From the NCBI GenBank assembly GCA_030849065.1, contig JASAON010001412.1, positions 1 to 22,751 of the forward strand: DNA of 22,751 nucleotides, read 5' to 3'. This stretch comes from Jaenimonas drosophilae (taxonomy: Eukaryota > Euglenozoa > Kinetoplastea > Trypanosomatida > Trypanosomatidae). Numbering within the stretch: the stretch's first letter is position 1; each line of letters opens with the position of its first letter. The notes under the pieces are model-generated. The model was not told the DNA's origin. It did not search any database and saw only the letters and a list, made by a program, of their open reading frames with translations. Positions 1,450 to 21,768 of this stretch are shown in pieces. Made by a program: the position numbers and the translations under genes.

Positions 1450-2433
1450 ATGACGACGCATCTATCCAGTACGGAGGAGCGCCAACCTCAACCACGCCTC
1501 AGCCTCCACCAACCTCATCACAATGCGCGCATCCTCCCTGACACGGAACAATCATTCCGCGTCGCAGAGATACAACGACCGCAGAATCTTCCTGAGGCGC
1601 TGCCTGGACGTTTACGCCCGCACAAGCTGCGAACGGTCATGGGCACCGCGGTGTTGGATGTATCAGCTCATCTTGATCTCGCCACCTTTGAGGCAGTCGC
1701 TCCCCCACCTCCCCCACCACACACCAGCACCGAAACTGTGCATGGGTCTCATCCAACAACGCCCACACACAAGCATCGCCACAACCGCAACAAAATCATC
1801 TTTAATTGCACCACACATGGCGGTGCCACAGAGGCCAACATCGACGTCCTTCGCAATTTGTGCAGCCCACGACCAACGCGGAGCACAGCACGAAGACGGA
1901 TGATTGCCGCGATGGGCGTTGGTGATGATGATGCTTCCGTGGATGTTGCCCCGCTCTGCGCACCCAGCGTACATCCATCATCACCACGTGGGGCGCTCAA
2001 GGCAGGTGGCTGCATCATCTTGACGGATGCGTTCATGGAAGCACACCGCCATCATCTTCGTGCCTACGGCCGTTTGCGTGAGTGCTTGCGCTGGCGCCGG
2101 CAAAGACAGACGCCAAACAGCCCAACCACAGCTGCTGCGTTGGCTGCCGCACACAAGAAGCCACCCACACATCATGTGCATGGGGATCATGTTGATGAGG
2201 ATCATGATGGTGCTACGCAGCCACGCGTGGAGAAGATCACGGCTCGTGTGCGGCGCTACGTACAACAGGTGCGTGAGCATCAACGGCCCTTGTTGCGCCG
2301 CATGGAGTCTGCCCGTGTGTATGGGCGAGGCTATTACTACACTGGGGCGGTGCCCGTGGCTGATTTCTCCATCGTGGATGAGAGTGCGGTGTCGGAGATG
2401 GACCAGAGAAGGATCTCCGCAGCGGCAGCATGA
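1450..2433 (+). CDS. Hypothetical protein, member 1 of a four-gene block A/B/C paralogue family (327 aa)
   Basis: I do not recognise this protein from any named family. The frame is also open a little upstream from a TTG at 1426, but ATG at 1450 is the first ATG and lies just after a likely splice acceptor, so it is the chosen start. Three blocks match the next three genes in the same order. Block A (residues 47-85) has an LP-rich lead-in and the core MGTAVLD. Block B (181-199) has A-L-x-x-GGC-x-I, then Asp and a final His. Block C (278-297) begins QRPLLRR and contains YGRG. Between A and B the chain is Pro/His/Thr-rich with a run of seven prolines near residue 86, so probably disordered. There is no signal peptide or membrane segment. 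The stop at 2431 is the first of seven consecutive in-frame TGA codons. Function and location are unknown. Confidence 0.85.
   Translation: MTTHLSSTEERQPQPRLSLHQPHHNARILPDTEQSFRVAEIQRPQNLPEALPGRLRPHKLRTVMGTAVLDVSAHLDLATFEAVAPPPPPPHTSTETVHGSHPTTPTHKHRHNRNKIIFNCTTHGGATEANIDVLRNLCSPRPTRSTARRRMIAAMGVGDDDASVDVAPLCAPSVHPSSPRGALKAGGCIILTDAFMEAHRHHLRAYGRLRECLRWRRQRQTPNSPTTAAALAAAHKKPPTHHVHGDHVDEDHDGATQPRVEKITARVRRYVQQVREHQRPLLRRMESARVYGRGYYYTGAVPVADFSIVDESAVSEMDQRRISAAAA
1990..2046 (+). other. Conserved block B, member 1
   Basis: This 19-codon segment aligns without gaps to segments in the next three genes. Alanine at position 2, glycines at 6 and 7, isoleucine at 10, aspartate at 13 and histidine at 19 are identical in all four. 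This copy has Cys at position 8. Confidence 0.8.
2281..2340 (+). other. Conserved block C, member 1
   Basis: This 20-codon segment aligns without gaps to the other three genes. Arg-Pro at positions 2-3, Arg at 6, Tyr-Gly at 14-15 and Tyr at 19 are identical in all four. It follows a probable helix rich in Arg, Val and Gln. Confidence 0.8.
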
Positions 2434-2454
2434 TGATGATGATGATGATGATGG
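2431..2454 (+). repeat. (TGA)7 microsatellite forming the stop region
   Basis: Seven TGA triplets run from 2431 and are in frame with the upstream gene, so the microsatellite is a run of seven consecutive stop codons followed by TGG. Confidence 0.9.
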
Positions 2455-3726
2455 CGTTCGTCAACATGAAGATGCGTGTTTTGCGAGTGGATGAAACATG
2501 TAGGAACCTTTTTTCTGTCATAGATGCACAATACACCCTCGTGCAACACGCGGATGTATCTTAACCACCCCTCTTCTTTTAGCTGTAAGTGGCCTACCTG
2601 CATGCGTGTTGATGAGGTTCCTCCTCTTTTTTTTTTTTTTTGATCTCCTCACAGATGTGTTGGTGCTGTTGGTTAAGTTCGTATGTGTTGGATGTACGTA
2701 CAGCCAATGCAGGCACACCAATGCCAACCATCTTCTCTTCTCCTCGTCCTCCTCCTCCTCATCGCCACATACACTACGTGCGCCACACTCGTGTTACTGG
2801 GAAAATACGCAGCTTCTCCCCTCTTAACTAAACGCACGGTGCATGTGTGTGTGAGCAGATACACGTTCTATTTCTTTTCCATCTTCATTTCTGCGCGTAG
2901 TGTATTGGCGCCGGGGGTCACTGCCGGTTTTGTTTTTGAAAATGTTTGTTTGGATGGTGATGATGATGTATCTTTGATGATTTCTCTTTCGTTCGTGGGT
3001 GACGGTATCCTCGTCGTTGATTTTTTTTTGTTTTTGATGATGTCGGTTGATGGCACAGCGTGTGTTGTGCGCGACGATGCATCATCGTGGAACACAGAAG
3101 TTCTGCAAGTCTTGGCAACTAAAACTGCTTCTCCTCTTCTAGTGTACGTACGTGTGTACGTGTGTGTGTGTATGTGCTGGATACGCATCCGAGTACCGTG
3201 ATGATTTTTTTGCTCCACATTTTTCTTTGTGTTTCTGTGCGTAGCGGCAACGAGGAGTTTCTTTGCCATCACAACAAACATTAGTTGTTTCCCACTCCCT
3301 CCTTCTCTCACACATTGTAGGAGGACCCACGAAGATCAACGCTGCCATCTCTGTGGGTAGCAGTGTTGTGGGCTAGCTGTGTAGGTGCATTTTGTTGTTT
3401 TGTGTTCGTAGATTGACTTCATATCTGTGTTGTTGTGATTGGCAAAGCTCGCGTGGGTGTGCGTTGTTTGCTTTCTTTTTATTTTCGTTTCTTCTTTTAG
3501 AGTAGAGCTACCTTAGAAGGGTGAAGAGAGGAGCTTGGCTGCTGCTGCTGTGTGCGCATCAGCTTGGAAGTGCGCACAACACATCCGCCATCTTTTTTTA
3601 ACGCGATTTTTTCTGTTTTTTTCTTTTCTTGTACTGTTTCACACCTTTCTTTCTGCTCATCTCCACATTCTTGCATCATCCATATTGTTGTGATTGTTGT
3701 TGTTAATCCTTCAAATCATTCACCTG
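2434..3726. other. Intergenic/UTR spacer between members 1 and 2
   Basis: T/G-rich spacer with T tracts (about 2626-2641 and 3022-3031), a CTC/CTT-rich run near 2733-2762, a GT-rich run near 3144-3175 and a strong pyrimidine tract at 3470-3498. The longest open stretch (2683-3201) encodes a hydrophobic, repetitive sequence with no resemblance to the neighbours. I treat it as chance. Confidence 0.6.
3470..3500 (+). promoter_or_regulatory. Candidate trans-splice acceptor for member 2
   Basis: A T/C-rich tract of about 28 bases ends in TTTTAG with the AG at 3499-3500. No ATG lies between this AG and the ATG at 3727, so this acceptor would make 3727 the first start codon. A second long pyrimidine tract (about 3590-3660) lies downstream and has no AG until 3771-3772, inside the coding frame. 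Confidence 0.5.
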
Positions 3727-6081
3727 ATGCCAATATCTGGTGCTGCTGCTGCTGCTGGCATGACCTCCGCAGAGGATGCCTCCGTCACCCGCCACCGACG
3801 ACGCCATCTCCGTCGCTTCTCTAATCATCCACGCGAGCGCAGACGAACACATCATCACCCATCGCAACTCTCCACGGGTGATGCCGTTGATACCCGATCT
3901 CAACAACAACAACATCATAGCGGTGATGATGGTGCACGGCGTCATCGACGCCCAACGCAACTTCGGCAGCCATCTTCTCCGCACCTAAGTCAGTCGTACG
4001 CGAGCGGCAACATGCAGATCAACGCCACTTCACTCACTAGTGGCCCTGCTACATCAACCACCACACCAACACCAGCCAATGCAGCAGCAGCTGGTGGTGG
4101 TGGTGGTGGTGCGCCTAATACTGCTCGTGCACCCAGTAGGCCGCGCGACGGCCATCGATCCTTTCGCCGCTCCATCTACACAAGCACACCGCCACGGCAA
4201 CGCCCGACATCAACACACGCACCAGCGAATATCACCAATAACACCAACAACAACGCCAACAACAACAACAACAACAACAGCAACAGCAGCGGCAACACAA
4301 CATCATCCACAGCTCACCCGCCTGCACTTCCTTCGACGCTGCGCTTTCGCCGTGAAGATGGAGGAGGTTATGTGTTGTCCAGTGATGCGCATGGCGCCAC
4401 CGCGATGGGTACGGCCATCATGCGCAGCACACAACAACTCCCGCTCAGCGCATCGCTGTTGGAGGTGGCGCTGCCTCGCCTGCCTCCGACGTCGTGGATG
4501 GATGAGGATGATGATGAATGTACCAATGAAGTTGGTGAGGATGGAGGTGCCATGATTCAGACCCCAACCAACGTATTCACGCAACGGAGCCGTGGAAGTG
4601 GTCGTCCCAGTGCGGCTACATCTCGATCACCCCTCGCGGCCAACAAATCGCAGAGCCACAACGCCATTGTTGGTCTAAACACCCGCATCCAAGAGCAGGA
4701 GGAGTTGGTGATGTATCTATCTTCATCCGCGGTGACGGTGCCAAGCTCACCGACTTCTCCACGACGTCTCCTGAGCCCAACGAGTGTGTTGCATGTGCTT
4801 CCATCTTCACCACAACCCCAACTACATCAACGTCCACTCAGCCCAATGCCAAATGCTGATGGAGTTGGTGGTGATGTTCTTACTGCTGCCACAAACACAA
4901 GTGGTGCGGCCTATAACCTGGCCTTGGCTACCGTGAGTAGCCTTCGCAGCGGAAGTAGTGAAGAGAGCTTGACGGATGATGATGATTCAAGCAGTGAAAG
5001 AAGCGCGGATGATGGTGTGGAGGAGATGGGCAGCAGCAGCATTCTCAGTGCGTTGGAGGAAGGTGGCGGCATCATCTTCTCCGATAGCTATTTGCGTTTG
5101 CATCCTGAATCAGCGCTCACCACCCGGTGCCATCGTTTGTCGGCGCACACCGCTTCACTACACAACTCCCCGCGCCCGTTGCGTTCAGAGGGCCGCTCAC
5201 TCAGCCCACATCCTGCCAATTTTCGATCCGGCCGCTCCCGTTTGACCTCTCCAACCATCGCCACCACGGCAGACAACGTTGCACCAACACGATGGGAGGC
5301 GGGCTCATCTGCGGAGCCATCCTCCCCAAGCACACACTTTCTTGCATACCCATCTTCACCAAGCACACCACAATACCAACAACAACAACAACAGTTGTTT
5401 GCATCACCACGAGGTGTTGGATCTGGTGCAGCCACCATCACTTTAGGGAGGTCCGTCGCAGCCGCTGGACGTAGCTCCAGCCGTTTTACGAGCCAAATTT
5501 CCGCGCCATTTTCACCCACTGACCCTAACAGCAACAACAACAACAACAGTTTTTCAACGATATTGCCTATGATGATGGATGCGGTGGTGCTCGAAGTGTA
5601 TGACTCCACAATAAACAATGCGAATGGGGGTCGCCGACGTCACCGCGACCGCCGACGGCTGCCATCGCGGCCTGTACCAACACCACAACACACCTCTCCG
5701 CGCCCCTCCATGGCGGGAGGTGTCCAGGCAGATTTGAAGCACGCAGCAGAATACCTGGTGGACGTGGCACAGAATCAGCGGCCCATGTTTCGTCGCAAGA
5801 CCTCGGCCGAGGCCTACGGCAGAGGCACCTACTTTCAGCCTGTTGACGTGAATGTGCCACGTTCATTGATGCAAGATCCGCTGAAGCAAACAAGACGACC
5901 ATCAGATCCATTAGCTGGCATGGGAACCATGCGTGATGATGGCGAGGGTATGCTGAGTGACACAAGTGGTACATGCATGAGTATTGCATCTCCTTCGCGC
6001 ACACTTGGACCTCCCCCGCAGATGCAGCCGGCCAACTTTGATAGCTCCATCATGCACGGTTCTGAGTGGATCAACCAGTAG
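3727..6081 (+). CDS. Hypothetical protein, member 2 of the block A/B/C paralogue family (784 aa)
   Basis: Unrecognised, and the longest member of the array. The frame opens at TTG codons from 3694, but 3727 is the first ATG; 3760 and 4012 are alternative starts. Block A is weak (residues 227-250, core MGTAIM). Block B (441-459) has GGG where the other members have GGC. Block C (684-703) contains QRPMFRR and YGRG. The added length is low-complexity filler: a basic His/Arg-rich N-terminus, a Gly run near residue 123, an Asn-rich tract near residues 168-190, and many Ser-Pro/Thr-Pro pairs near residues 335-380 and 480-600, which could be proline-directed kinase sites. An acidic Asp/Ser stretch precedes block B, as in member 4. 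Most of the chain is probably disordered, with blocks A to C as the constrained parts. The N-terminal 95 residues are uncertain because of the alternative splice acceptor. Confidence 0.85.
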   Translation: MPISGAAAAAGMTSAEDASVTRHRRRHLRRFSNHPRERRRTHHHPSQLSTGDAVDTRSQQQQHHSGDDGARRHRRPTQLRQPSSPHLSQSYASGNMQINATSLTSGPATSTTTPTPANAAAAGGGGGGAPNTARAPSRPRDGHRSFRRSIYTSTPPRQRPTSTHAPANITNNTNNNANNNNNNNSNSSGNTTSSTAHPPALPSTLRFRREDGGGYVLSSDAHGATAMGTAIMRSTQQLPLSASLLEVALPRLPPTSWMDEDDDECTNEVGEDGGAMIQTPTNVFTQRSRGSGRPSAATSRSPLAANKSQSHNAIVGLNTRIQEQEELVMYLSSSAVTVPSSPTSPRRLLSPTSVLHVLPSSPQPQLHQRPLSPMPNADGVGGDVLTAATNTSGAAYNLALATVSSLRSGSSEESLTDDDDSSSERSADDGVEEMGSSSILSALEEGGGIIFSDSYLRLHPESALTTRCHRLSAHTASLHNSPRPLRSEGRSLSPHPANFRSGRSRLTSPTIATTADNVAPTRWEAGSSAEPSSPSTHFLAYPSSPSTPQYQQQQQQLFASPRGVGSGAATITLGRSVAAAGRSSSRFTSQISAPFSPTDPNSNNNNNSFSTILPMMMDAVVLEVYDSTINNANGGRRRHRDRRRLPSRPVPTPQHTSPRPSMAGGVQADLKHAAEYLVDVAQNQRPMFRRKTSAEAYGRGTYFQPVDVNVPRSLMQDPLKQTRRPSDPLAGMGTMRDDGEGMLSDTSGTCMSIASPSRTLGPPPQMQPANFDSSIMHGSEWINQ
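4228..4296 (+). repeat. AAC-rich microsatellite encoding an Asn-rich tract in member 2
   Basis: Imperfect AAC repeats interrupted by ACC, GCC and AGC encode an Asn-rich stretch. It is in frame and not conserved in the other family members. Confidence 0.85.
5047..5103 (+). other. Conserved block B, member 2
   Basis: Aligns gaplessly to the other block B copies and keeps all six invariant positions. It is the only copy with Gly instead of Cys at position 8. Confidence 0.8.
5776..5835 (+). other. Conserved block C, member 2
   Basis: QRPMFRR followed seven residues later by YGRGTY. Invariant Arg, Pro, Arg, Tyr, Gly and Tyr are all present. Confidence 0.8.
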
Positions 6082-6645
6082 ATCCATTAACAACCCGATG
6101 CAGGCACACATTGCTGGTTATGTTGTGATGCTTTCATGTACCACGAATGCACCAACAGTGTGATGTTACTTGCGTGGTTTGGCACCAACACACTGCCTGA
6201 CTCACTTTTCGAGGTACACCCACCCACCATCTACCCATCCACCCATCAACAACGTGTTCGGAAGTGTGATCTAGTGACGCCGTGCGTGTTTTTGTGCCAA
6301 AACAACCCTCTTCTCCCTCCTCATACTCCCCCTCTCTTTTCTTAATGCCTTCACTTGTTGCGTGGTGATGATGGATGATACACCTTTAAAAGCCCGACAC
6401 TCTAACAACAAGTGCTGAAACACATTCATCAAGGGCTCACCACGCTCTCACTTTTTTTTTTCTTCTTGTGTTTTCCGCTCGTCCGTGAGGATGACGAACA
6501 TCTCTGCTTTTTCCTCTCTTGATCTGTGGTGAGCGTGCAGCTGCTGCATTCCACGGCACACACACACGTGCCTACCTACTTAATCAAGAATCACCTACCT
6601 TATGATTTTTGATGTGTTTGTGTGTTGTGTTTTCGTATATGCAAC

Positions 6646-6658
6646 ATATATATATATA
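6646..6658. repeat. Short (AT)n microsatellite
   Basis: An uninterrupted alternating AT run followed by AAA. It resembles a TATA element but is about 1 kb from the next start codon. Kinetoplastid protein genes generally lack TATA promoters, so I record it only as a simple repeat. Confidence 0.7.
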
Positions 6659-7570
6659 AAAGACTGTTTGTTTGTTTCATTCATCACTCCTCACCCTCTA
6701 CTACCTCTGCAGATCCTTTGTGACTAATCATGATCAACAGAAGAGGTTTTGGCGATGGTGATGAGTGCTGAAGCAGACGTGGATGCGTTGATGTTGTGAA
6801 GTTTTGGCGTCGCACTCATTCATGCGCACTCACACTATATACTTCGTTGGAAACAACAGGAATACAAATCAAATACGTCGGATTTATATATCCAGAGTGA
6901 GGAGGGTGACTGCGTCTGTGTGTGATGCAACACGTGCAAATCCAAGGCCTATCTGATTTGCAATCATGCCATTTCGTGGCAACCCATGTATCGTGGATAT
7001 GTTTGTTGTGCAAGTGTACTCCTGCGGTGCGCCGGATGCTAACATTGCCCCTGACACTGACTTCCCACACCGCCGCTCACGACATCATCTTGTGTGTCGT
7101 GTCCTGTTCTGCGCCATACACACATCTTTTTTTTTGTTGTTTTTGTTTGTTTTGCTTGTTGTGTTTTGTGTTGATGTTGAGCTAACTCATCTTCTTCCTA
7201 CCTACCCTCCATGCCTCTCTGCCCCTCTGCATGTTCTTCTATACACGTGCATGTGTCTGTCTGCGCCAGGCACCAACCACGTTGGGGAGAAGCAATCAAA
7301 CTTCATGAATTCAAAGGAGATGACCATGACGAGCGTCATGTAGTGGTGAGCGTGTGCTCCTTGCTGCGGCTGAAGCTAATGTATTGCTGTTCCTCGTCTT
7401 CGTGTGTGTTGCTGCTCATGTTCGCCATCACCATCATCACGAACAACATTCTTTTCGTTCTCTTTCTTTTGATGCACACAATCTTCTCAGACCAGCCTTC
7501 TTCATGAAAAACAAAAAACAGTTTCTATGCCAACAGAAACAACTCATCTTTGTCTGTTCCTACCAAACTA

Positions 7571-7578
7571 AACATTAG
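7571..7578 (+). promoter_or_regulatory. Candidate trans-splice acceptor for member 3
   Basis: A weak pyrimidine stretch (about 7543-7560) precedes an AG at 7577-7578, after which the first ATG is the chosen start at 7657. An upstream alternative is AG 7489-7490 after a better T/C tract at 7450-7488; it would include a 24-codon upstream reading frame at 7504-7578. Confidence 0.35.
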
Positions 7579-7656
7579 CACCCCACTCTCCACCAACACC
7601 CACAACAACGTCATCATTGAACCATCACTCCACGTCACTGAGCTACGCATCTCGTG

Positions 7657-8454
7657 ATGTTGGAGGCCATGCTCAGCTATCAAGTGCATCAGATGCCAAT
7701 GCCATCACCCTTGGCAAGAAGCAGTAGCACCAACACCCTCAGCAACGCACGTACTCATCCAGAGGCTCTACCGGCTGACTTGCCGCAACATCTGCGTGGG
7801 ACGGTGAATGGTGTTGCGGTGATTGATGATGGCTCTAAGGATTTACGTGATGTTGAGCCAACCTTGGAGCTCATCGCTTCCGCCGTGGTGATGAAACACC
7901 AGCTGTACATGAAGGCGAGTGTGTTGGATGGCCGCCAAGATGATGCACGGACGACGATGGATGCTACACAACATCAAGACTGCAGTGCGGATAGAACCCA
8001 GGAACATCTTCATGACCAACATGACGTAGAGCGCGTCTCTACGTCTTGTACTCATGCGCACCTTATTCGTGCGCTTAACACACAAGTGCAGCCACAGACC
8101 TCATCCATCTCCCCGAGAGATGCCATTCGTGCCGGCGGCTGCGTCATCTTCAGCGACGTCTTCGTTCATGAGCACCCAACCTCACCAGTTACGCAGCTCA
8201 CGCATGAATACCAGCTCATTCAACAAGAACGTGCACGTACACGAGGTAAACGAGTGACGGCTACCTCATGCGCATCATCCAGAGACAGCACCTACGGCGG
8301 ACGTGTACGTGGTGAGCAGCTGGAGCTGGTGGAGCTGGATCACTACCTGATGGAGGCGATGCGTGCAGAGAGACCATTGTTTCGCCGACAACCATCACAA
8401 CAGCTGTATGGCCGAAGCACGTACCTCACCCGTGATGGGGAAGGGGTGCTGTGA
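7657..8454 (+). CDS. Hypothetical protein, member 3 of the block A/B/C paralogue family (265 aa)
   Basis: Unrecognised, and the shortest and least padded member, so it is the best guide to the core fold. The frame also opens with GTG at 7654, but the adjacent ATG at 7657 is taken as the start. Block A (residues 35-75) starts PEALP, identical to the same point in member 1, and continues to an AVIDD core. Block B (155-173) is AIRAGGCVIFSD ending in His. Block C (238-257) is ERPLFRR followed by YGRSTY. Only 64 residues separate B from C and just eight follow C. No membrane segment, signal peptide or catalytic signature is visible. It probably arose by duplication with its neighbours; function is unknown. 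Confidence 0.85.
   Translation: MLEAMLSYQVHQMPMPSPLARSSSTNTLSNARTHPEALPADLPQHLRGTVNGVAVIDDGSKDLRDVEPTLELIASAVVMKHQLYMKASVLDGRQDDARTTMDATQHQDCSADRTQEHLHDQHDVERVSTSCTHAHLIRALNTQVQPQTSSISPRDAIRAGGCVIFSDVFVHEHPTSPVTQLTHEYQLIQQERARTRGKRVTATSCASSRDSTYGGRVRGEQLELVELDHYLMEAMRAERPLFRRQPSQQLYGRSTYLTRDGEGVL
8119..8175 (+). other. Conserved block B, member 3
   Basis: Gapless match to the other three copies with all invariant residues (Ala, Gly-Gly, Ile, Asp, His) and Cys at position 8. Confidence 0.8.
8368..8427 (+). other. Conserved block C, member 3
   Basis: ERPLFRR then YGRSTY. Arg-Pro, Arg, Tyr-Gly and Tyr are kept. It is preceded by a probable amphipathic helix. Confidence 0.8.
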
Positions 8455-9555
8455 TGTCTATGCTCGTTGGGGATGCTCATGCGCAGCGTTCATCAGCACG
8501 TACTCACTCCATCATGTTCTTATCTGATTGTTAGTGCATCTGTGCCAACATGCGTTGTGGCGTGTATGACGATCGTCAATCAATAATGGAGGTTCCTCCA
8601 ACTCTCTTCACTCAGAATTCTTCTTCCATAATTCTCCCATCTTGTTTTTGTTGCTTTATGTTTGCTCTGCCTCTTCAGCACTGTACAACACCAGCAACCA
8701 TCATCATCTTTTTTTCTCTTGTTGTTGGTTGTTGTTGGTACGTACGCCCCCTCCCTAGCTGCTTTCTTTTGCACACCACCATACAGCACATTTTTTTTTG
8801 GCGATGTGTGGTATGATGGATGCCAACTACCTCGTTTTTGTTTTGGGTGCTGGATCATTAGTGAAAAAACGTGTGTGATGATGATTTTTGTTCTCTTCTT
8901 GATTGAGAGAAAATAATGAATGACTGACTTATGACGGACGTATGAAGCCTTTGTTTCGTGGAGATGATGGAACACCCTCTCCAATTTTTTGTGGCTTTAC
9001 TTGTTCTTCTTTTTATTTTCTTTTTGTTGTTGTTCCACGACGTGCTCATCTACGATGATGCTCCAGCGCATATAACACTGCGCAACAACGTCAACGTAGC
9101 ACTTCATTGACGTGTGTTTTTATCACCAACGTCGCCCCGGCTTCTTCTCCACGGGAGCGTTAACGTCACCAAAGAATGAAGAAGGCTTCTTCTCTAGGCA
9201 CATGTATGAAGAAGAGGTTGGTGCATGTTAGGAGCTCAGCGGATTGTGTGCGTACTGCCCCCATGATGATGCTACACATGTTGGCCTTCATTTCTACTCT
9301 TTTCGTCTTTTCGTGAATACAGGATTGAGATCACTGGGCCTCACACTCAGTCATACTCCTTCGTCCTTCTCGTCCCGAGGGCGTGCTTTTTTTTTTCCTT
9401 CTTCAAGCGTGTGTACGAGTAGCGCAACACACAACACATTTGATTGTGTTGCGTAGGTTAGTTTTTCTTATTTCTTCATTTTTTTCTTGTAGTTGTGTGT
9501 GTGTGTGGCTGTGTGAGTCTTCACACATCTACGCATACACGCAGAATCACATCCC
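8455..9555. other. Intergenic/UTR spacer between members 3 and 4
   Basis: No supportable gene. T-rich segments occur at about 8709-8733, 8789-8800, 8991-9035 and 9387-9400, with a pyrimidine tract at 9462-9488 leading into member 4. Open stretches on either strand are Phe/Ser-rich or Lys-rich products of the T tracts. Confidence 0.6.
9462..9492 (+). promoter_or_regulatory. Candidate trans-splice acceptor for member 4
   Basis: A T/C-rich tract of about 27 bases is followed by TTGTAG with AG at 9491-9492. The next ATG is the gene start at 9556, giving a 63-base leader. This is one of the clearest acceptor candidates in the window. Confidence 0.55.
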
Positions 9556-10761
9556 ATGCCTCGACAGCGACGTAGGGATCCCTCCCGCAGTCGTGGCCCG
9601 CAAGATGTGAATCTGCCAGGGAATCCAGATCGTGTATATCGTGGCGTGTACCGCGGCGCACAACTTCCACGACTGCGTCGCTCCGACTTGCCACGCGCCA
9701 AGGCACCAAAAGGAGATTTGTATAAGTTTGTCTCAACTGGTGTTGCGATCATGGATCGGAATTGGTCTGTGGAGGAGCATCAGCTGGAGGTGGTGGCACC
9801 AGATGCCTGGATGGATATCATTCACAACTGGAAGCCACGACGGTCATCAACGCGGAGTGTTGTGTCTAGCTTGTACTCCGTCATGGACCAACAACCGCTG
9901 CCGGTGAGCGATGATCAATCTGGGTCTTGCTCCAATTCGATGGCTTCACAGCGTGCGCCACGCCCGAGGCAGATCTCCATGGCGGGTGGACGAGCACGCG
10001 AGAGCAGCATCGCCAACACCAACCAAAGCATCTATAATGAAGAGGAAGATGGCGATGATGATGAAGATGATGATGATGAGGCATCAAGTAGCGAAAGTGA
10101 GGAGGATGAGCTCGTCACCATGGTGAGTGAGCGGGCCATGAAGGACGTGCGCAAAGCCATAAAGCGCGGTGGGTGCTTCATCTTCACAGATAGCTATCTG
10201 TCCAGGCACCCGAACAGCAGCATCAGTCGCATGTCGGAGCGCTTTGAAAACTTTTACAACCATCGATTTGGTGATCAGGACGCCATCATGGCTCTTCTTG
10301 CCAACCGTGAAGGCACGGAGCAGCGCACGGAGCAGCTCTTCCGTGAGGCGCTGCTTCTCAAGCGGCCAGTGTACCGCATAAAAGGTGCGGAGAAGGTCTA
10401 CGGGCAGAGCATGTATAGCCCTCGCATCATCACGAAGGAGGATGATGATAAACCATCCCCCAACCAACAAAAACGAAAGCAACAACTACAGGAACAACTG
10501 GAGCAACAACGGAAGCAGCAGGAGGAGCAGAAGGCCAAGCAGCGGAGGTTGCGTGATAGCTACAAGGATGGTGGTGAAGATCGTGAAGATCGCCAACGAC
10601 ACATCAAACGTGCGCTGTTTCAGGCGTTGGAGGATTTGGAGAACTCAAGCTCCAGCGTTAACATCAGCGATGTGACGGTTGGTGTGGTGAGCTCCGTCTC
10701 TGCACTCGATGTGAATAGCCCTCGTGGTCTTGGTGATTCACTCACGGCACTAACTCCCTAG
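9556..10761 (+). CDS. Hypothetical protein, member 4 of the block A/B/C paralogue family (401 aa)
   Basis: Unrecognised. ATG at 9556 is the first after a clear acceptor. The N-terminus is Arg/Pro-rich. Block A (residues 55-82) has the core GVAIMD and ends LEVVAP, close to FEAVAP in member 1. An acidic Glu/Asp run (about 159-175) lies before block B (200-218, AIKRGGCFIFTD ending in His). Block C (269-288) is the most divergent copy: KRPVYRI and YGQ in place of RR and YGR. It is also the only member with a long Gln/Lys/Arg/Glu-rich helix after block C (about 303-360), probably a coiled coil. The frame ends with TAG immediately followed by TGA. The coiled coil suggests self-association or a scaffold role, but that is inference. 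Confidence 0.87.
   Translation: MPRQRRRDPSRSRGPQDVNLPGNPDRVYRGVYRGAQLPRLRRSDLPRAKAPKGDLYKFVSTGVAIMDRNWSVEEHQLEVVAPDAWMDIIHNWKPRRSSTRSVVSSLYSVMDQQPLPVSDDQSGSCSNSMASQRAPRPRQISMAGGRARESSIANTNQSIYNEEEDGDDDEDDDDEASSSESEEDELVTMVSERAMKDVRKAIKRGGCFIFTDSYLSRHPNSSISRMSERFENFYNHRFGDQDAIMALLANREGTEQRTEQLFREALLLKRPVYRIKGAEKVYGQSMYSPRIITKEDDDKPSPNQQKRKQQLQEQLEQQRKQQEEQKAKQRRLRDSYKDGGEDREDRQRHIKRALFQALEDLENSSSSVNISDVTVGVVSSVSALDVNSPRGLGDSLTALTP
10153..10209 (+). other. Conserved block B, member 4
   Basis: Gapless match to the other block B copies with all invariant residues and Cys at position 8. Confidence 0.8.
10360..10419 (+). other. Conserved block C, member 4
   Basis: KRPVYRI then YGQSMY. This divergent copy keeps Arg-Pro, Arg, Tyr-Gly and Tyr. 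Confidence 0.75.
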
Positions 10762-11290: not shown

Positions 11291-11673
11291 CCGTTTCCTC
11301 AGCTGTGAGGAGAAGGAGGCAGCAACGCTCGACTGTGCAGAAATTTTTTTTTGCTGTCCTTTTTCCTTTTTCTTCTTCTTTTCATTTTTGCTGATTTGTT
11401 CTTCTGGATCGTTGAGTTTCACCTGTACATGTTAGCCCCTTGGTGACTCCAGTGTGCTCAGGTGTTGCTGCGGTCGCGTACATCTTCAGCCAATGACGTC
11501 ATGCGTCTTGAGGTGGAGAACACACTTCGTTTATGCGTCATTCACCACACAGCGAGGATGATGGCTGTGAGCTTTTTTTTTTTTATTCATCCTGCTTCTT
11601 TTTTTCTTCACTTTTCACGCTTTCAATTCCTCAGTTGTATTTTTGTTTTTCGCTCGCTCCGTGGATGTTCCTC
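11291..11673. repeat. Copy 1 of a duplicated segment, probable end of the left contig
   Basis: 383 bases near-identical to 11675-12067. Differences are mostly T-run lengths plus a few substitutions (for example ACATG against ACTTG, and CAATGAC against CAAAGAC). This copy ends at the base immediately before the ambiguous base. Confidence 0.9.
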
Positions 11674-11674
11674 N
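11674..11674. other. Single ambiguous base, probable unmerged contig overlap
   Basis: The only ambiguous base in the window, located exactly between the two copies. Some scaffolding programs write one n where contigs overlap but were not merged, and the flanks here fit that. Confidence 0.8.
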
Positions 11675-12067
11675 CCATTTCCTCAGCTGTGAGGAGAAGG
11701 AGGCAGCAACGCTCGACTGTGCAGAAAATTTTTTTTTTTTGCTGTCCTTTTTCTTTTTCTTTTTTCTTCTTCTTTTCATTTTTGCTGATTTGTTCTTCTG
11801 GATCGTTGAGTTTCACCTGTACTTGTTAGCCCCTTGGTGACTCCAGTGTGCTCAGGTGTTGCTGCGGTCGCGTACATCTTCAGCCAAAGACGTCATGCGT
11901 CTTGAGGTGGAGAACACACTTCGTTTATGCGTCATTCACCACACAGCGAGGATGATGGCTGTGAGCTTTTTTTTTTGGATTCATCCTGCTTCTTTTTTTC
12001 TTCACTTTTCACGCTTTCAATTCCTCAGTTGTATTTTTGTTTTTCGCTCGCTCCGTGGATGTTCCTC
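11675..12067. repeat. Copy 2 of a duplicated segment, probable start of the right contig
   Basis: 393 bases beginning at the base right after the ambiguous base and matching copy 1 to its last base. Copy 2 carries longer T runs in the first third, which accounts for most of the length difference. Confidence 0.9.
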
Positions 12068-12721: not shown

Positions 12722-15700
12722 ATGCCCAAGGCTTCATCACCCTCCAAGATGGAGAGGAAGCGGGCCCACTCCCCGGTTGCGGAGGACGATGATCATGATC
12801 AAACCTTTTTTGTGGATGAGGCAGATGGCGAGCGCTTCAAGATGGTCTTCCAAGGAGATCTCAATCGGCTGAGCGTGGCCAAGATACGTCGCTATCTGCG
12901 GCTGCACAACATCAACGATGAAGATGAGCTGCGGTACGAGGGAAGAGTGTTGTCGGATGATATGCGAGGAGCTGAGTTTGGTCTGAAGCGTGGCGTGGTA
13001 TTAAAGCTACGCAAGCCATCACCTCCACGGAAGGCCGAACATCATCAAGCACACCACCAACAGCAGCAGCAGCAGCAGCAGCGCAACAACAACAACAACA
13101 ACATCTCCGCCAAGGGCAGTAACATCAAGGCAAAGAACAGCAACATCAACGCCAAGAAGAAGCATGTGGAGGAGGCAGACTCGTGTAGAGATGGTGGATC
13201 ACAGACCTTTGAAGAGCGTGTTCGCCTGAACAAGGATATGTTTGCCCTTCGCTTTCACATTGAGCGTGTTCGTGATGATGCGCGCAACACACGTGATGGA
13301 GCATCCATGAAGCTTCCCGCACTTCACGAGCGCCACTCGCCATCGCCCAATGCACCAACCTCTTCCGAGATGAGCAGCAGCGACCTCCCATCACCCACCG
13401 TATTGAAACTGAAGAAGAAAAAGTTGCTGCTCAACAAGGCATCATCACCGGCCTTCTCGGATGTGCTCGTTGATGCATCTGCTCCTGAATCGTACGGCCG
13501 TGGGGATCCTAATGTGGTCCGGCCGGCAAAGAATGCACGTGTTCGTGGATGTTCTCCTCCACGAAACAACAACAACAACAACAACACGACAAACAGCAAC
13601 AAGAACAACGCCGTGAGTCCAGAAGAGATGTGTGGTGGCCCTTCCTTGTATATTCAGCGGTTGCACGAGATGCTCCGTCAAGCAGAGGCACTTGGATATA
13701 CTCCAAACAACAACAACAACAACAACGCCACACCGCATCTTCAATCATCGGTGCTTCAGCTCTCACCACAACAATCCGGGCCACAGTATGAGATGCCACT
13801 TGGCGCGGGTGTTGCTCCGGACTCGCTGCGATCAACGCCAGCCGTAAATGCAGCAGCCAATGTTGCGACCTCCACGCCAGGTACCGCACGTCCTCCCCAT
13901 ACCAACACCGCCATCAACGACAACAACAACATAAACAGCAACAACGTCATGGAGGAGATCCGAGACGTCCGTGAAGCGGTGCTCGATATGACGGGGATGT
14001 TGATGGAAATGAAGAAGCGCGGTGTGCGGCACCTCTCTGCGAGCTCCTCCACCACCGACAGCAGCATCACGCTGCCACGTGAGGAGTACGCCACATATGG
14101 TGCAGCGGCTGGTGATCGAAGAGGTGTTCGTCAAGAGGATCACGTGGCATCTCTTCCGATGCGTGTGCCAAGTCCGCTTCGCCCATCGCATCGTGATCAG
14201 CAGAGACAGCCCATCATGGATGAATCTGGTGAGGAGGAATTTGCGCAACGTTTGCACGATGTTCTTCCACGTGCAGAAGGTGTGTTGCAGGCTCTTCTTG
14301 GTGCCCTCCATGTGGCAGCCTATGAACCCTTGTCAGCTCGGCAGCGTGAGGAAGGCCGTGGAGCAGTACCTCCACGTACATCATCCAAGAAGCAGCACAT
14401 CACGCCACCTTCTCAATCGGTGTTTGCCGATGAAGACTCCATGCCAACAGGCAGGGCCATTGGGATGGAGCTCCGTGGCATTCGGGGTCTGCTGAAGGAG
14501 CTCGAGGCACGTGTAGAGGGCGGTGGTGAAGGGAGTGGGCGCCTGCACCCACAACAACAACAGCAGCAACAACAGCAACAACAACGTACGCCTCGGCAAT
14601 CTCCCACATCCAAGGATGGCCATCTTCTACGTGCCACGACCCCACTCGGGCAAGATCTTCGTCGTGTGATTAACTACACCGAGCATGCTCTCGTGGATTT
14701 GGTGGAGGTGCTGCAGCAATCACAGCGCTCACAACATGATGCAGCTGAACGGAGCTCTCCACGACCAGAGAACCAACGCATTTCTCCCGATGCAGGACGA
14801 AGGCACTCGCCACGTCATGCCGCTCATCACGTGCAGGATTCAACATGTGCCAGAGTGGCGCAGCCGCCACCGTCTCAGCGCTCACTCAGCGGACGCCGTT
14901 CATCACCTCTACAGAGTGCGTCGGTACATCAACATCGGCGGCGCGGGGAGCATCATCGTCACCCATCCAGTGGGCGGAAGGAGGCTGCGGAGAGCAGAGA
15001 GGAGGCGATTCTTCACGAAGTGCACGACATTCATCAAGCGTTGCGCAATCTGGTGATGAGAGAAGATGAAGGAGCGGAATCACGTACCTCGCCCATTCGC
15101 GGTCAGAGGCATCCATCTCAACACGCTGGCCGCTTCTCTGCAGATGTACCATCGCCACACTCATCGGCTGCACGATCTGTAGATACACGATCAACGCGAC
15201 CTCCCCCACCCTCATCCGCCACAGATGCTCCCATCTACGATGGCCAACGTCTTCACGAAACGGTACAGCGTGCAGAGCAAGTGATTCATCATTTGCTGCA
15301 CATTGCGCAAGGCCAGCCTAACGTGGTTGCTGCCGCCAACAACAACAAGATGGGAGAGGCACCGAACGTCTCCACCCTTGAACGAAAAGACACAAAACGC
15401 TTTGACCAAACACCATACTCTGGCCCACTCGGAGTAGGTGTTGGCGCACAAGATACATCCACGACGGGCTCCACGCTGATTCAGCAGAGTGTGGTGGAGC
15501 AGCTGGGCAGTGTGCAGCACATGGTGGAGGATCTTGCACGTGTGGTGCGCTCACAGCATAATCTTCATGATCCATCGACGTCATCGCCATCGGCTGCTGT
15601 TGGCGCGGCTCGTACAACGCCAGTGTCACGCCAATTTGAGGTCCTTCCGTTGCCGCCGAGCGCCACCGGATTTGGGGAGTTTGCTTCCGCACAGTTGGGG

Positions 15701-16420
15701 CAACAACAACACAACCGCTCTGCTCCTGCATCACCTCCCCTGCCACAACAACAACAACAACAACAACAATTTGATGTGGATGGCGGCGTTCCTTCGCATG
15801 TTGTGGAGAAGCGCTTGAAGCACATCACCGTAGAGGTGGAGGAAGTACTCAGCGGACTGACGCAGCTCGTGCGGGCACTGGAGGAGCGTGGCATCTCACC
15901 CACAACAACCATTTCAAAGACTATGAATGATGGCAGCTCACGCCACACCTTGCCGGAGCCAAGCTACGAAAACCGAGCAGCTCCACACGCATCAGCATCC
16001 AACGTCGTTGATCAACCACAGCAGATGGCGTTCCGTGAGCAGTTTTATACGGAATTGCCATCACAAGCAGTTGAGGTGGCACCCATGACAGAGCTCCATC
16101 CTGGGCAGTCTGCTACACTGCAGCTTTCCACGCAGATGCGCTCATACAATGACGTGGATGTGCAACAACAACAACATCCGTATTCGGGATCTCTTCAATC
16201 ACAACATAGTCCTTTGTCTCAGCAATCCTCGCGCCAGATCTCTGGCCGAGGATCGTTGGGCTCACAGCCGACGAACGCCAACAACAACAACATCATCTCT
16301 TCACGTGGTAGCACGAAACAACTTTATAGGCAGGCACTGACGATGTTAGGTGATGTGGAGAACATCCTTGGGGATTTAAGAGGCATCGTGGGTAACGAGG
16401 GCCAACCAGCACAATCATAG
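12722..16420 (+). CDS. Large hypothetical protein with N-terminal ubiquitin-like domain and helical modules (1232 aa)
   Basis: The start is the ATG two bases after a candidate acceptor. Residues 28-98 align along the whole length of ubiquitin: a first strand (FFVDEADG), a second strand (FKMVFQG), a helix (VAKIRRYLR), a D-E-L strand with G-x-V-L matching the ubiquitin G-K-Q-L turn, and a last strand ending LKLRK. No Gly-Gly terminus follows, so it is a fixed Ubl domain, not a processed modifier. The rest is Ser/Pro/His-rich with CAG/CAA-encoded Gln runs and AAC-encoded Asn runs, broken by about ten short amphipathic helical modules near residues 309, 410, 507, 582, 643, 761, 839, 924, 1026 and 1201. 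Three of these (309, 507, 839) share QRLH[ED] and A-E-x-[LV]. The final module (LTMLGDVENIL) resembles one in the next gene. Function unknown; an adaptor or scaffold that binds ubiquitin-fold partners is conceivable but unproven. Confidence 0.9.
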   Translation: MPKASSPSKMERKRAHSPVAEDDDHDQTFFVDEADGERFKMVFQGDLNRLSVAKIRRYLRLHNINDEDELRYEGRVLSDDMRGAEFGLKRGVVLKLRKPSPPRKAEHHQAHHQQQQQQQQRNNNNNNISAKGSNIKAKNSNINAKKKHVEEADSCRDGGSQTFEERVRLNKDMFALRFHIERVRDDARNTRDGASMKLPALHERHSPSPNAPTSSEMSSSDLPSPTVLKLKKKKLLLNKASSPAFSDVLVDASAPESYGRGDPNVVRPAKNARVRGCSPPRNNNNNNNTTNSNKNNAVSPEEMCGGPSLYIQRLHEMLRQAEALGYTPNNNNNNNATPHLQSSVLQLSPQQSGPQYEMPLGAGVAPDSLRSTPAVNAAANVATSTPGTARPPHTNTAINDNNNINSNNVMEEIRDVREAVLDMTGMLMEMKKRGVRHLSASSSTTDSSITLPREEYATYGAAAGDRRGVRQEDHVASLPMRVPSPLRPSHRDQQRQPIMDESGEEEFAQRLHDVLPRAEGVLQALLGALHVAAYEPLSARQREEGRGAVPPRTSSKKQHITPPSQSVFADEDSMPTGRAIGMELRGIRGLLKELEARVEGGGEGSGRLHPQQQQQQQQQQQRTPRQSPTSKDGHLLRATTPLGQDLRRVINYTEHALVDLVEVLQQSQRSQHDAAERSSPRPENQRISPDAGRRHSPRHAAHHVQDSTCARVAQPPPSQRSLSGRRSSPLQSASVHQHRRRGEHHRHPSSGRKEAAESREEAILHEVHDIHQALRNLVMREDEGAESRTSPIRGQRHPSQHAGRFSADVPSPHSSAARSVDTRSTRPPPPSSATDAPIYDGQRLHETVQRAEQVIHHLLHIAQGQPNVVAAANNNKMGEAPNVSTLERKDTKRFDQTPYSGPLGVGVGAQDTSTTGSTLIQQSVVEQLGSVQHMVEDLARVVRSQHNLHDPSTSSPSAAVGAARTTPVSRQFEVLPLPPSATGFGEFASAQLGQQQHNRSAPASPPLPQQQQQQQQFDVDGGVPSHVVEKRLKHITVEVEEVLSGLTQLVRALEERGISPTTTISKTMNDGSSRHTLPEPSYENRAAPHASASNVVDQPQQMAFREQFYTELPSQAVEVAPMTELHPGQSATLQLSTQMRSYNDVDVQQQQHPYSGSLQSQHSPLSQQSSRQISGRGSLGSQPTNANNNNIISSRGSTKQLYRQALTMLGDVENILGDLRGIVGNEGQPAQS
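12803..13015 (+). other. Ubiquitin-like domain of the 1232-aa protein
   Basis: About 71 codons aligning with ubiquitin strand by strand with roughly one indel in the central half. Against the Ubl of the next large protein, 60 gapless positions give 22 identities by hand count, including the seven-residue helix segment KIRRYLR. Confidence 0.75.
13061..13104 (+). repeat. CAG then AAC microsatellite encoding Gln and Asn runs
   Basis: A CAG run encoding Gln is followed after one Arg codon by an AAC run encoding Asn. It lies just after the Ubl domain and is likely a flexible linker. Confidence 0.85.
13646..13705 (+). other. QRLH helical module, copy 1
   Basis: Encodes IQRLHEML followed by R-Q-A-E-A-L, matching copies at residues 507 and 839 of the same protein and a segment in the partial gene at the window end. 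Confidence 0.6.
14240..14322 (+). other. QRLH helical module, copy 2
   Basis: AQRLHDVL then R-A-E-G-V, extended by a second helical stretch rich in Leu and Ala. Confidence 0.6.
14551..14586 (+). repeat. CAA/CAG run encoding twelve Gln
   Basis: Mixed CAA and CAG codons encode a Gln run in the 1232-aa protein. Mixed codons argue for an older or selected tract, not a recent slippage event. Confidence 0.8.
15236..15316 (+). other. QRLH helical module, copy 3
   Basis: GQRLHETV then Q-R-A-E-Q-V and a His/Leu-rich helix. It is the same module as copies 1 and 2. Confidence 0.6.
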
Positions 16421-16456: not shown

Positions 16457-17008
16457 ATCTTGATCACCATCATCCAGCAACGCATTCATCCCATTCGTCC
16501 ACCGTGGCGATGTGCCGTACACACACCATATATAGATAGAGATGGCTTTAACGTGGCTGCATTCGTCTATGTGCCTTGCGGCGTCATGGATGATGCCTGT
16601 CTTGACGCACGACGCTTTTTTTTTTCCTTCTTTTCTTTCGTATCAGATTATCAGTATTTGTTTCGTGCTTCATCTTGTGTATTGTCATACCCACACACGT
16701 GTGCCTACCTCATCAATAGTGTTAGAGTGAAGCATGTGTTGGTGTATGTGTGCGCGCACAGAGGATGAAGGCATCTTGTTTCTTCTTTTGTTCTCCGCAC
16801 CTCGTGTGCTGGTGGAGAGTATAGAGGCGGCATAGATCGTGAACGCACACATCTTGTGTGAAGATGTAAAAGCGAAAAAAAAAAGAGCTACTCTGCGACG
16901 TGTGTGATACGTAGGAGCACGATGAAGTGCTGTTTCTGCTTCCAACAAAATGTTGCTGGTTCATTCTTGCTCTTCTTGATCACAGACAGCTCACTGTAGT
17001 TGCGGAAC

Positions 17009-17035
17009 TCTTTTTGTTTGCTGGCAACACAACAG
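17009..17035 (+). promoter_or_regulatory. Candidate trans-splice acceptor for the 1205-aa Ubl protein
   Basis: A short T/C-rich tract (17009-17020) followed by the first AG at 17034-17035, 21 bases before the ATG at 17057. Another AG at 17052-17053 is also possible. Confidence 0.4.
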
Positions 17036-17056
17036 CAGCACATATCATCTGAGGTG

Positions 17057-20000
17057 ATGGCCGCCACCATCGTGGATGAGGTGCTGCTGAGTTCCATCCT
17101 CACCCCAACGTCTTCATCGCCGCCACGGAATGCGCACATGCACGTCTTCTACATCAAGCGTGAAGCATCTCGCCAACGTTTTGAGATGCAAATGGAGGGA
17201 AATTTGCAGAGCCTGACCATAGACAAGATACGCCGATACCTCCGCATGCAGGGTGTGCCAGATTGCGATGAGCTTCATTTCCACGGCGTTGTCCTGCGTA
17301 GTGGGCAGCTCTGCGGTGATGTGCAGCTCGTGGATGGGGCCACAATGGAGCTCATTGCACGCCATGCTCCACCACCCATTTATTATGAATCATCCGCGCA
17401 CTCTGGTGCATACCGCGATGGTAATGATGATGATCATGAGCCAACTCTTCGCTGCACTTCCGTAAAGTACGAGGATAGCTCATCATCAGCATCATCGTCA
17501 TCGCTGGATGGTCGCGTGGTTGATGGAGTTGTGCAGAGCTACACAAGAAAATCTAAGAAGAGCGACGGCGCACTTCCCGTCGTTCAGCTCACGGTGAAGG
17601 TGGTTAATTTGCACACTGGAGCTTGTGATGTGAAAGCATCCGTGGAACCTCAACGTAAGTGGCCGCGGAAACCTGTGATGGAGCTTGGTGGGGGCTTGCA
17701 TCATCATCCAGATGAACCAAAAAAGCGTAGACGTCGTCGTGGCAAGTATCGCGCGCTCGATGTGCCAATGAGCCCGTTGGAGTGCGTGGAGTGCTGCAAC
17801 TCCATGGAATTTGCCAGGACGGCATCTCACAGCAGCGATCAGCGACGCCAACACAGCCGCTCTGCCTCCACGTCTGGGCGCTTTTTATCATCGATGCATA
17901 AATCGCCCACCTTTGCTGATGTTCCTCGTTCCACGGAACCTCGTTCCTTCAGTGATGTACTGCCATGTGTACGAAGGAGCTATCCATCTCGTGGGAGTCG
18001 TGGTGATGATGGCAGCCCAACTGCTCCTCCATCCATCCTACTTCCATCTATACAACTGTACGAATGTACGCCACATGCGGAGGTCCATCACAACTCACGC
18101 GACCAAGGCCATGCGATGATGCACCATTCCGTGAGCACCCAAACCGCGCTCGGCCATCATCAGGCCTCTTCTCCTGTGTATCACTATGCAACACAACAGG
18201 ACGTTTGTGATGATGATGATGATGATGATGAAACTTTGAGCATCCACTCACCCTTGCATACGTGCCGACCATCGATTCACAAGATGGATCGTTGCACCAA
18301 CACGGAACATCTTCACTCAGTGGAGCAACTACCTCATCGTGATGCATGCACCCCACAAAAGCCTCGTGTGCTCGTGGAGCGCAGCAAAGACCTCTCCTGT
18401 GGGTCCTCTGGGCACCTTCGAACACATGTGCAGCGTGTAAGCTCCGTGAAGATGTGGATGGCGGCGTTGCCACCTCCGATGCAGTTCTTGGCCGTGGAGC
18501 AACCAACAGCAGAGCTGGCCAACATTCCGAAGGATTCATTGGAGGTGTGCAACTCACGACGAGCAAGTGAGGCTGGAGATGTTGTGGTGCCAGAAGCCCC
18601 GGCACCCAAGACGTCTGGCAAAGAAAGCACCCCAACGACGGTAGCATCATCTCAGCCATCCACCAACAAACAAACCATCACATCCGTTGAATCATTCCGG
18701 TGTGCTCCGCCCGATCAGCAGTCTGCGGCCATCTTTGCTACCCTGAAGGGTGTGGAGGACAACACACGTCAGGTGCTTCATCAGCTAAAGATTGGTGCTC
18801 CAACACAGGGGTGCTTCACAACACGGGTGCCATCATCATCGGGTGGAACTCCGCTGGACCTTCCTCACGTGGGAGATGCGCACCATGATGGCCATGAAGA
18901 TGATAATGGGAGCGGTCAGAACCAAACACACCAACACGAACACACTATTCCAACGGATCCGAACGTTGCCATGGAGCTCAGCAAGAACCTCTCACGGGGT
19001 TCTTCTGCCAACGTTGGCACGTGTGCTCGACGAGTGAGTTCTGCCACGATGTGCATGTCAGCGCTGCCACCTCCGATGGACTTCTCCGTGGCGGAGCAGC
19101 AAACGATGGAACTCCCCAACACATCAGAGACCTCCCTGGAGGTTTGTACGTCACTGCAAGCCAACTCCATTCTGTCAGACCCTCCCGGAGAGTTTCTGGC
19201 AACGCGTTCGACGGTGTTGTTTGGCAATCTTCCCATCACAACAACGGAAGCCTTTGGCTCTGCCACCCCAGCTGAGCAGGCACAGACACTTTCGATGGTG
19301 GTGGTGCAGCTGAGCGATATGCATCGCCAACTTCGCCAGCACGTCATGACGGATCATGAAGAAAAGCAACAACAACAACAACAACAACGTGAGAAACATG
19401 CACCGGTAGCTCCATCAGCTGTGGTGTTTCCACCCATCGTTGCACGTGCCGGTGGAGGTCGGGGCAGCACAGGAGGTGCGCAGCCTGTGGCTCACTCCAC
19501 GTGTGTGGAGATGCGCGCTAGTCGTGAGATGATTCAGACCTCGCCACTACAAAAATCTTCTCAGGGCCTGACCTTGATGGAAAAGACGAAGACGACTCCA
19601 TCTACCAACCAGAAGAAGAAGGAGCTCTCACAGCCCTCTACGCGTGCAGATGCACACGCACCATCTCCGTCCTCGATTGTGTCCATGGAAGAATTCCGAG
19701 CTGCATCGCCAGAAGCACAGGCGAAGGCCTTCTGTGATTTGCTGGAGCGGCTGCAGGAGCTGAGCCGCCAACTACGTCAGCGGATGCAAGAAGGGAAGAT
19801 ATACTTTGAAGGGGAGGATGGCAGGAGGTCATGCTTATCCCAAGGTGCATCGTGCGTGGAGGCAGAGAAGCCTGCATCGCCAGAGGAGGTGATGGGCGCC
19901 GAGGATACGGCGGTGCAACAACGTGCGCTGCTGATGCTATCGGATATGGAGCACATGGTGGAGGAGGTGCAGCGCCATGTGGAGGCTTCAAGCTTGACAC

Positions 20001-20674: not shown

Positions 20675-21768
<1,094 letters not shown>

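What the first reader, a model, noticed from the sequence alone, without database searches (positions are those of the whole stretch)
1450..10761. Four-gene tandem array of an unrecognised protein family defined by two short conserved blocks
Four consecutive + strand genes (327, 784, 265 and 401 aa) share block B (A-[IL]-x-x-G-G-[CG]-x-I-[IFL]-[ST]-D-x-[FY]-x-x-x-H) and block C ([QEK]-R-P-[LMV]-[LFY]-R-[RI]-...-Y-G-[RQ]-x-x-Y). Both align gaplessly in the same order, while the rest diverges almost completely. Six positions in each block are invariant. I know no family with this pair. The B-to-C spacing varies from 50 to 224 residues, so the blocks could pair in the fold across disordered insertions. 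Seen: the blocks. Inferred: common ancestry by tandem duplication.
Basis: partly seen in the sequence, partly recalled or inferred. Interest (0 to 1): 0.8.

Follow-up and report, generated by a model that had tools for sequence, protein, structure and literature searches.

The report
Trypanosomatid tandem family of three-block proteins
A trypanosomatid genome carries a tandem row of fast-evolving, mostly disordered proteins that share three short conserved blocks; the family is real and matched no catalogued domain here, but its function and its spread in other species are still open.

Summary
The four genes (327, 784, 265, 401 aa) carry blocks B and C as described; each block has six positions invariant among the four, and the B-to-C gap is 50 to 224 residues. 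G-T-A-V-I-D ... L-E-V-V).

The same assembly holds 18 members: 4 in the window, 3 on contig C118, 11 on C323. C118 (reversed) plus the window contig is collinear with C323. Seven ortholog pairs show that the paralogs diverged before the segment was duplicated. Profiles from the 11 C323 members find all 7 others (E 1.6e-8 or better per block) and none of 1,400 shuffles at E 0.01.

No relative was found in Pfam, PDB or a 5.8-billion-protein set that does hold trypanosomatid proteins; that last negative is weak, because low-complexity words probably swamp its first filter. Low-confidence AlphaFold models place strands in all three blocks, suggesting one small alpha/beta domain split by disordered insertions.

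Best mechanism (inferred): a non-enzymatic cytosolic adaptor with a shared docking domain and variable disordered arms. A membrane-anchored neighbour carries a block-C-like stretch and may be a distant relative.

The parts
1450..2433 (+). family member 1 (327 aa); ortholog of C323:32788-33831
   Evidence: blocks A, B and C each found by profiles made from C323
1585..1707 (+). block A of member 1
   Evidence: alignments; coordinates
1993..2046 (+). block B of member 1 (ALKAGGCIILTDAFMEAH)
2281..2340 (+). block C of member 1 (QRPLLRRMESARVYGRGYYY)
3727..6081 (+). family member 2 (784 aa, longest insertions); ortholog of C323:35121-37409. The start could also be the in-frame ATG at 3760
4315..4488 (+). 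block A of member 2, with an insertion inside
5050..5103 (+). block B of member 2 (ALEEGGGIIFSDSYLRLH)
5776..5835 (+). block C of member 2 (QRPMFRRKTSAEAYGRGTYF)
7657..8454 (+). family member 3 (265 aa, shortest of the four); ortholog of the gene at C323:38451-39506
   Evidence: AlphaFold model
7756..7884 (+). block A of member 3
8122..8175 (+). block B of member 3 (AIRAGGCVIFSDVFVHEH)
8368..8427 (+). block C of member 3 (ERPLFRRQPSQQLYGRSTYL)
9556..10761 (+). family member 4 (401 aa, charged Q/E/K-rich tail after block C); ortholog of C323:40703-41938
   Evidence: AlphaFold model of part of it
9688..9810 (+). block A of member 4
10156..10209 (+). block B of member 4 (AIKRGGCFIFTDSYLSRH)
10360..10419 (+). 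block C of member 4 (KRPVYRIKGAEKVYGQSMYS)

Best explanation
The four genes belong to one tandem family of cytosolic, largely disordered trypanosomatid proteins. Shown here: 18 members in one assembly, three collinear conserved blocks, two collinear copies of the array, paralogs older than the duplication of the segment, purifying selection focused on the blocks, no membrane span by hydropathy. Inferred with weak structural support: blocks A, B and C fold together into one small alpha/beta domain whose loops are long, variable, disordered insertions. Inferred without direct evidence: the domain is a non-enzymatic docking module by which all members bind one common partner or class of partners, mainly through the basic-aromatic end of block C (RPLFRRxxSxxxYGRGxY), while the paralog-specific disordered arms give each member its own further contacts. 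The conserved serine after the arginine pair could be a switch for a basophilic kinase. The single-pass membrane protein encoded upstream of the first members in both copies may be a membrane-anchored relative.
For: Three blocks in one order in 18 of 18 members with 12 invariant columns. Profiles from 11 members recover 7 of 7 others per block, 0 of 1,400 shuffles at E 0.01. Seven ortholog pairs: identity 69% in A (236 of 342), 70% in B (214 of 304), 80% in C (190 of 237), 44% elsewhere (812 of 1842); changes per codon position 0.22/0.12/0.51 in blocks and 0.41/0.35/0.61 elsewhere. The tree on block columns groups 7 of 7 pairs as orthologs, branch support 97 to 100. Highest 19-residue hydropathy among 18 members is 1.55, against 2.39 and 2.50 in the two membrane neighbours. 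Low pLDDT outside the blocks and strands in or beside A, B and C in two AlphaFold models. The serine after RR is present in 15 of 18. Block B's H is N in 7 of 18, which speaks against an active-site D-H pair.
Against: Both models are low in confidence (mean pLDDT 52.1 and 45.7, pTM 0.47 and 0.40) and rest on the same four window proteins, so they are not independent and the shared domain is a suggestion. Nothing tests binding, phosphorylation or location. The membrane neighbour is supported in block C only (11.2 and 11.3 bits against at most 7.5 in scoring shuffles; hhalign E 0.0036 but probability 9%). Its A-like part exceeds all but 1 of 231 scoring shuffles in the C323 copy but not in the C118 copy (47 of 245 reach it), and its B-like part does not stand out.
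Confidence: 0.35

Rival explanations
1. Cytoskeletal or flagellar structural proteins: the blocks are short sequences laid along microtubules or an attachment zone, like microtubule inner proteins, and no globular domain forms.
For: Trypanosomatids have many lineage-specific cytoskeletal proteins (recalled). The end of block C (YGRGxY after a basic-aromatic stretch) resembles motifs of such proteins only by recall; no call shows it.
Against: A profile of all 18 members finds no PDB chain at E 10, and one of the B-C part of 12 members finds none convincing (best E 0.16, a designed barrel). The models predict alpha/beta elements rather than extended chains, at low confidence.
Confidence: 0.2
2. 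RNA-binding or RNA-granule proteins: the basic-aromatic block C contacts RNA and the S/P/N/Q-rich arms drive condensation.
For: RR and YGRG in block C (15 of 18 have the R of YGR); poly-N and poly-Q tracts in several members.
Against: No RNA-binding domain among the Pfam matches of 18 members at E 1; block C is one copy per protein, unlike RGG tracts.
Confidence: 0.15
3. An ordinary conserved-hypothetical orthogroup present across trypanosomatids and already listed in parasite genome databases, merely not curated as a domain.
For: RPA2 shows the organism is an ordinary trypanosomatid, 65 to 71% identical to the Phytomonas, Leishmaniinae and Trypanosoma proteins named, and the protein search is probably blind to relatives of low-complexity queries. 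From recall only, neighbouring genes (ubiquitin-L40, phospholipid methyltransferase) bring Leishmania chromosome 31 to mind.
Against: Single and profile searches of 5.8 billion proteins returned nothing at E 10, though that set holds named trypanosomatid proteins.
Confidence: 0.55
4. The two arrays come from two species or strains mixed in the assembly and not from a segment duplicated in one genome.
For: C118 (reversed) plus C121 is collinear with C323; the best segments of the 7 family pairs are 40 to 62% identical. Only one Rpb2-family gene was found where three are expected (recalled), so the assembly or the search is incomplete and single copies prove little.
Against: RPA2 and the MoeA-like gene were found once each. 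Outside the block C118 carries a phosphatase and two cullin-like genes with no BLAST match at 1e-5 in C323:1-80000, which has a MoeA-like gene instead. Base composition is similar (C121 0.513, C118 0.498, C323 0.519).
Confidence: 0.25

Closest known systems
Pfam-A families in general (24,736 models)
   Same: Nothing but chance-level matches: 6 families at E 1 or better among 18 members, each in one member.
   Different: The best is 2OG-FeII_Oxy_6, E 0.082, 13.3 bits against a cut-off of 27.
Membrane-anchored neighbour, C323:13806-15752 and C118:10267-12060 (same genome)
   Same: Block-C-like stretch SSFDVYGRGAYL; by eye also YPEAQPS and RRLRDISKGGYLVYER in the family's order.
   Different: N-terminal membrane span, no RPLFRR, no invariant D of block B; only the block C part is statistically supported in both copies.
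Ubiquitin-like proteins next door (window 12722-16420 and 17000-20674)
   Same: Same habit: a small conserved domain in a long, low-complexity protein, in the same segment.
   Different: The N-terminal part of the first weakly matches ubiquitin variants in the PDB (E 0.31 and 0.44), the second shares that part with the first; neither reaches E 0.01 for block A, B or C.

Membership tests
The three-block family itself (window members) | Blocks A, B and C in this order in one open frame | tested here: met
   18 of 18 members including all 4 window genes
The three-block family itself (membrane neighbour) | Blocks A, B and C each scoring above shuffles | tested here: not met
   Block C exceeds every scoring shuffle in both copies; A exceeds all but 1 of 231 in one copy and fails in the other; B fails. 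Profile-profile match limited to 20 columns of block C
Any Pfam-A family | Score above the curated cut-off | tested here: not met
   Best E among 18 members is 0.082, 13.3 bits against a cut-off of 27; cut-offs of four of the six chance-level families were not printed
Proteins with a solved structure | Sequence-profile match to a PDB chain, or fold match of the model | tested here: inconclusive
   No convincing match, but the models are of low confidence
Trypanosomatid-wide orthogroup | Relatives in Leishmania, Trypanosoma or Phytomonas | tested here: inconclusive
   None found in a set that holds trypanosomatid proteins, but only 7,334 and 7,992 word-sharing candidates were scored
Microtubule inner or flagellar structural proteins | Location on the axoneme or cytoskeleton | not testable with these tools
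   No localisation data; considered from recalled motif likeness only
Basophilic kinase substrates | Conserved phosphorylatable residue after an arginine pair | tested here: inconclusive
   Serine present in 15 of 18; phosphorylation itself not testable here

The most novel reading that the evidence does not exclude
A new small alpha/beta fold assembled from three short, widely separated blocks, with disordered insertions of tens to more than two hundred residues placed between its parts; the tandem array is a kit of adaptors sharing one docking domain and differing in the insertions, with one membrane-anchored version at its head.
Probability: 0.15. Interest if true: 0.6.

Novelty: new member of a known kind. 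Interest (0 to 1): 0.36.

Why it matters
Much of a trypanosomatid proteome is 'hypothetical, conserved' (general knowledge) because disordered, fast-changing sequence hides small shared domains. Here a family that annotation libraries leave blank becomes definable by three blocks and 12 invariant residues, which gives a profile to search other trypanosomatids with, residues to test, and a natural experiment: at least 7 paralogs kept apart through the duplication of their whole segment.

Tried and rejected
Enzyme reading (D and H of block B as catalytic): rejected, H is N in 7 of 18 members and no Pfam enzyme matches better than E 0.082. Membrane or surface protein: rejected on hydropathy only, highest 19-residue value 1.55 in 18 members. 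Family scattered over the genome: not seen. Three single-protein searches hit members only on C121, C118 and C323; hits elsewhere have E 0.029 or worse. Of those four places I fetched pieces of C119, C162 and C130, in which block profiles gave nothing at E 0.01 or better; C362 was not fetched. A genome-wide codon pattern for YGRGxY gave 24 matches; the reversed-pattern controls gave 12 and 19, so the pattern is not enriched in the genome as a whole, but 16 of the 24 lie in 14 members and the two membrane neighbours. In the 8 other places no frame of 80 aa or more reaches E 0.01 for block A or B (best 0.11 and 0.033); one 95-aa frame on C358 shows block-C-like letters alone at E 0.006. Prokaryotic or viral relatives: 23 pattern matches in viral contigs, none confirmed; of 39 in genome contigs one 23-residue tblastn match in a Clostridia bin, which lies in no frame of 60 aa or more on the matching strand, and no frame of that stretch reaches E 0.5 for any block. 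Fold searches of both models against the PDB: best E 7.6 and 2.7; the VIA-align look, first model only, found nothing. A single spliced-leader pattern gave no match, which says little because such arrays are often missing from assemblies. An RPA2 tree of 31 of the 34 proteins plus the genome's own (P0033 to P0035 left out) put it beside two Phytomonas; the support of that join was not printed and neighbouring branches have 30 to 76, so the place is unresolved. Papers: six searches, listings only, no paper opened (one, none, none, five, none and none listed); no title or abstract start shown names such a family. One of the searches used six short motif strings.
Full report
What was checked. The window is bases 1-22751 of contig C121 of an assembly of 18.8 million bases in 370 contigs. 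The organism is a trypanosomatid: its RNA polymerase I second subunit is up to 71% identical to named trypanosomatid proteins. By reading, contig C89 carries a calmodulin gene, a calmodulin-like gene and ubiquitin-L40, and the window holds a ubiquitin-L40 gene at 21376-21768.

The family is larger and has three blocks. One search of the genome with the 401-aa protein found further members on C323 and C118. I fetched these contigs in pieces and listed open frames. There are 18 members: 4 on C121, 3 on the minus strand of C118, 11 on C323 (nine in a row from 16783 to 41938, then 53696-54730 and 56309-57907). All carry block A upstream of B, and 12 columns are invariant over all 18: four in A (P, G, A, E), three in B (G, G, D), five in C (R, P, Y, G, Y). 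Profiles built only from the C323 members found every other member for each block, and no shuffled protein at E 0.01. The spacing from GG of B to RP of C runs from 64 to 240 residues, and from A to B from about 83 to 295. Three single-protein searches suggest that the family stays on these three contigs, but only the best candidates are scored, so the count of 18 is a lower bound.

Two collinear arrays. C118 (reversed) followed by C121 has the gene order of C323 from about 13.7 to 51 kb: membrane protein, three members, four members, ubiquitin-like protein, ubiquitin-L40 and a following gene. Four C323 members (26546, 30009, 53696, 56309) have no counterpart found, and C118 has an extra phosphatase gene between the membrane protein and its first member. 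The best segments of the 7 family pairs are 40 to 62% identical, and the ubiquitin-L40 proteins are identical over 129 residues. A tree on the block columns puts 7 of 7 pairs together with support 97 to 100, so the members were already distinct before the segment was copied, and they have not been homogenised. That C118 and C121 are neighbours is an inference. RPA2 and a MoeA-like gene were found once each, and gene order outside the block differs, so a segmental duplication is likelier than two mixed species. Only one Rpb2-family gene was seen, so the assembly or the search is incomplete and this is not proven.

Selection. Across the seven pairs, blocks A, B and C keep 69, 70 and 80% identity against 44% elsewhere. 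Second codon positions differ at 0.12 in blocks (883 codons) against 0.35 elsewhere (1842 codons), while third positions differ at 0.51 and 0.61. These are translated genes with constraint concentrated in the blocks.

What it resembles. The best Pfam match among the 18 members has E 0.082, and PDB profile searches give nothing convincing. A single-protein and a profile search of 5.8 billion proteins gave nothing at E 10. As a control, the RPA2 protein of the same genome found Leishmania, Leptomonas, Novymonas, Porcisia, Trypanosoma, Phytomonas, Strigomonas and Angomonas proteins in that set, so trypanosomatids are there. The control is a long, conserved protein, however. Only some 7,300 and 8,000 word-sharing candidates were scored, and the family's poly-N, poly-Q and serine-rich words probably fill such lists, so the negative does not show that relatives are missing elsewhere.

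Structure. AlphaFold with only the four window proteins gives low confidence (mean pLDDT 52.1 and 45.7; pTM 0.47 and 0.40). The better parts coincide with the blocks (ten-residue means up to 81 in and after B and 73 in C of the 265-aa protein). Both models give the same order: two strands (A), helix-strand-helix-helix (B and what follows), helix-strand (C). The second model has one more strand just before A. In the 265-aa model the strands of three or more residues are two in A, one in B and one in C. Since DSSP strands need partners, the blocks probably share a sheet in that model; I did not see coordinates, so which strands pair is unknown. Fold searches found nothing.

The membrane neighbour. 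The first gene of the collinear segment (C323:13806-15752; C118:10267-12060; 58% identical) has a membrane span after a short N-terminus and a stretch SSFDVYGRGAYL. Block C scores 11.2 and 11.3 bits against at most 7.5 in the shuffles that gave a score. The A-like part of the C323 copy beats all but 1 of 231 scoring shuffles, but that of the C118 copy is reached by 47 of 245, and B does not stand out. The profile-profile match covers 20 columns of block C (E 0.0036, probability 9%). By eye the other two blocks are present in degenerate form in the right order. A three-motif pattern that I wrote after seeing this matches both copies and 10 of 18 members strictly, 14 of 18 strictly or loosely, and 0 of 20,000 shuffles of the C323 copy. 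I call it a possible distant relative.

How it most likely works. The family looks like non-enzymatic cytosolic adaptors: a shared small domain that meets a common partner, and disordered arms that differ between paralogs. Only the shared blocks, the constraint and the lack of membrane spans by hydropathy are shown; the domain is weakly supported; the docking role is inference.

Verdict. In checking I mended several numbers (pair identities, block coordinates, the shuffle result for block A of the neighbour, Pfam cut-offs); none called for a change of odds.

Noticed in passing
window 12722-16420 and 17000-20674: Two long low-complexity proteins whose N-terminal part looks like a divergent ubiquitin-like domain; related short hits occur on C323, C193 and C253.
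   Followed up: partly
window 11291-12052: A stretch of about 390 bases stands twice in tandem (300 bases at 98% identity, spacing 394), with a single N at 11674 at the join, possibly an assembly effect.
   Followed up: partly
C323:10566-12719 (L009:566-2719): A MoeA/MogA-like (gephyrin-type) molybdenum cofactor protein in a trypanosomatid, found once in the assembly.
   Followed up: partly
C118:13223-16657 and 17271-20000 (L019): Two neighbouring large genes with a cullin neddylation domain beside the second array.
   Followed up: no
C121, C323 and C89: Three ubiquitin-L40 genes, one in each array segment and one beside calmodulin genes on C89.
   Followed up: partly
C118:8600-9724 (L016): A HAD-type phosphatase gene sits between the membrane protein and the first member on C118 but has no match in C323:1-80000, so the two segments differ by an insertion or loss.
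   Followed up: no
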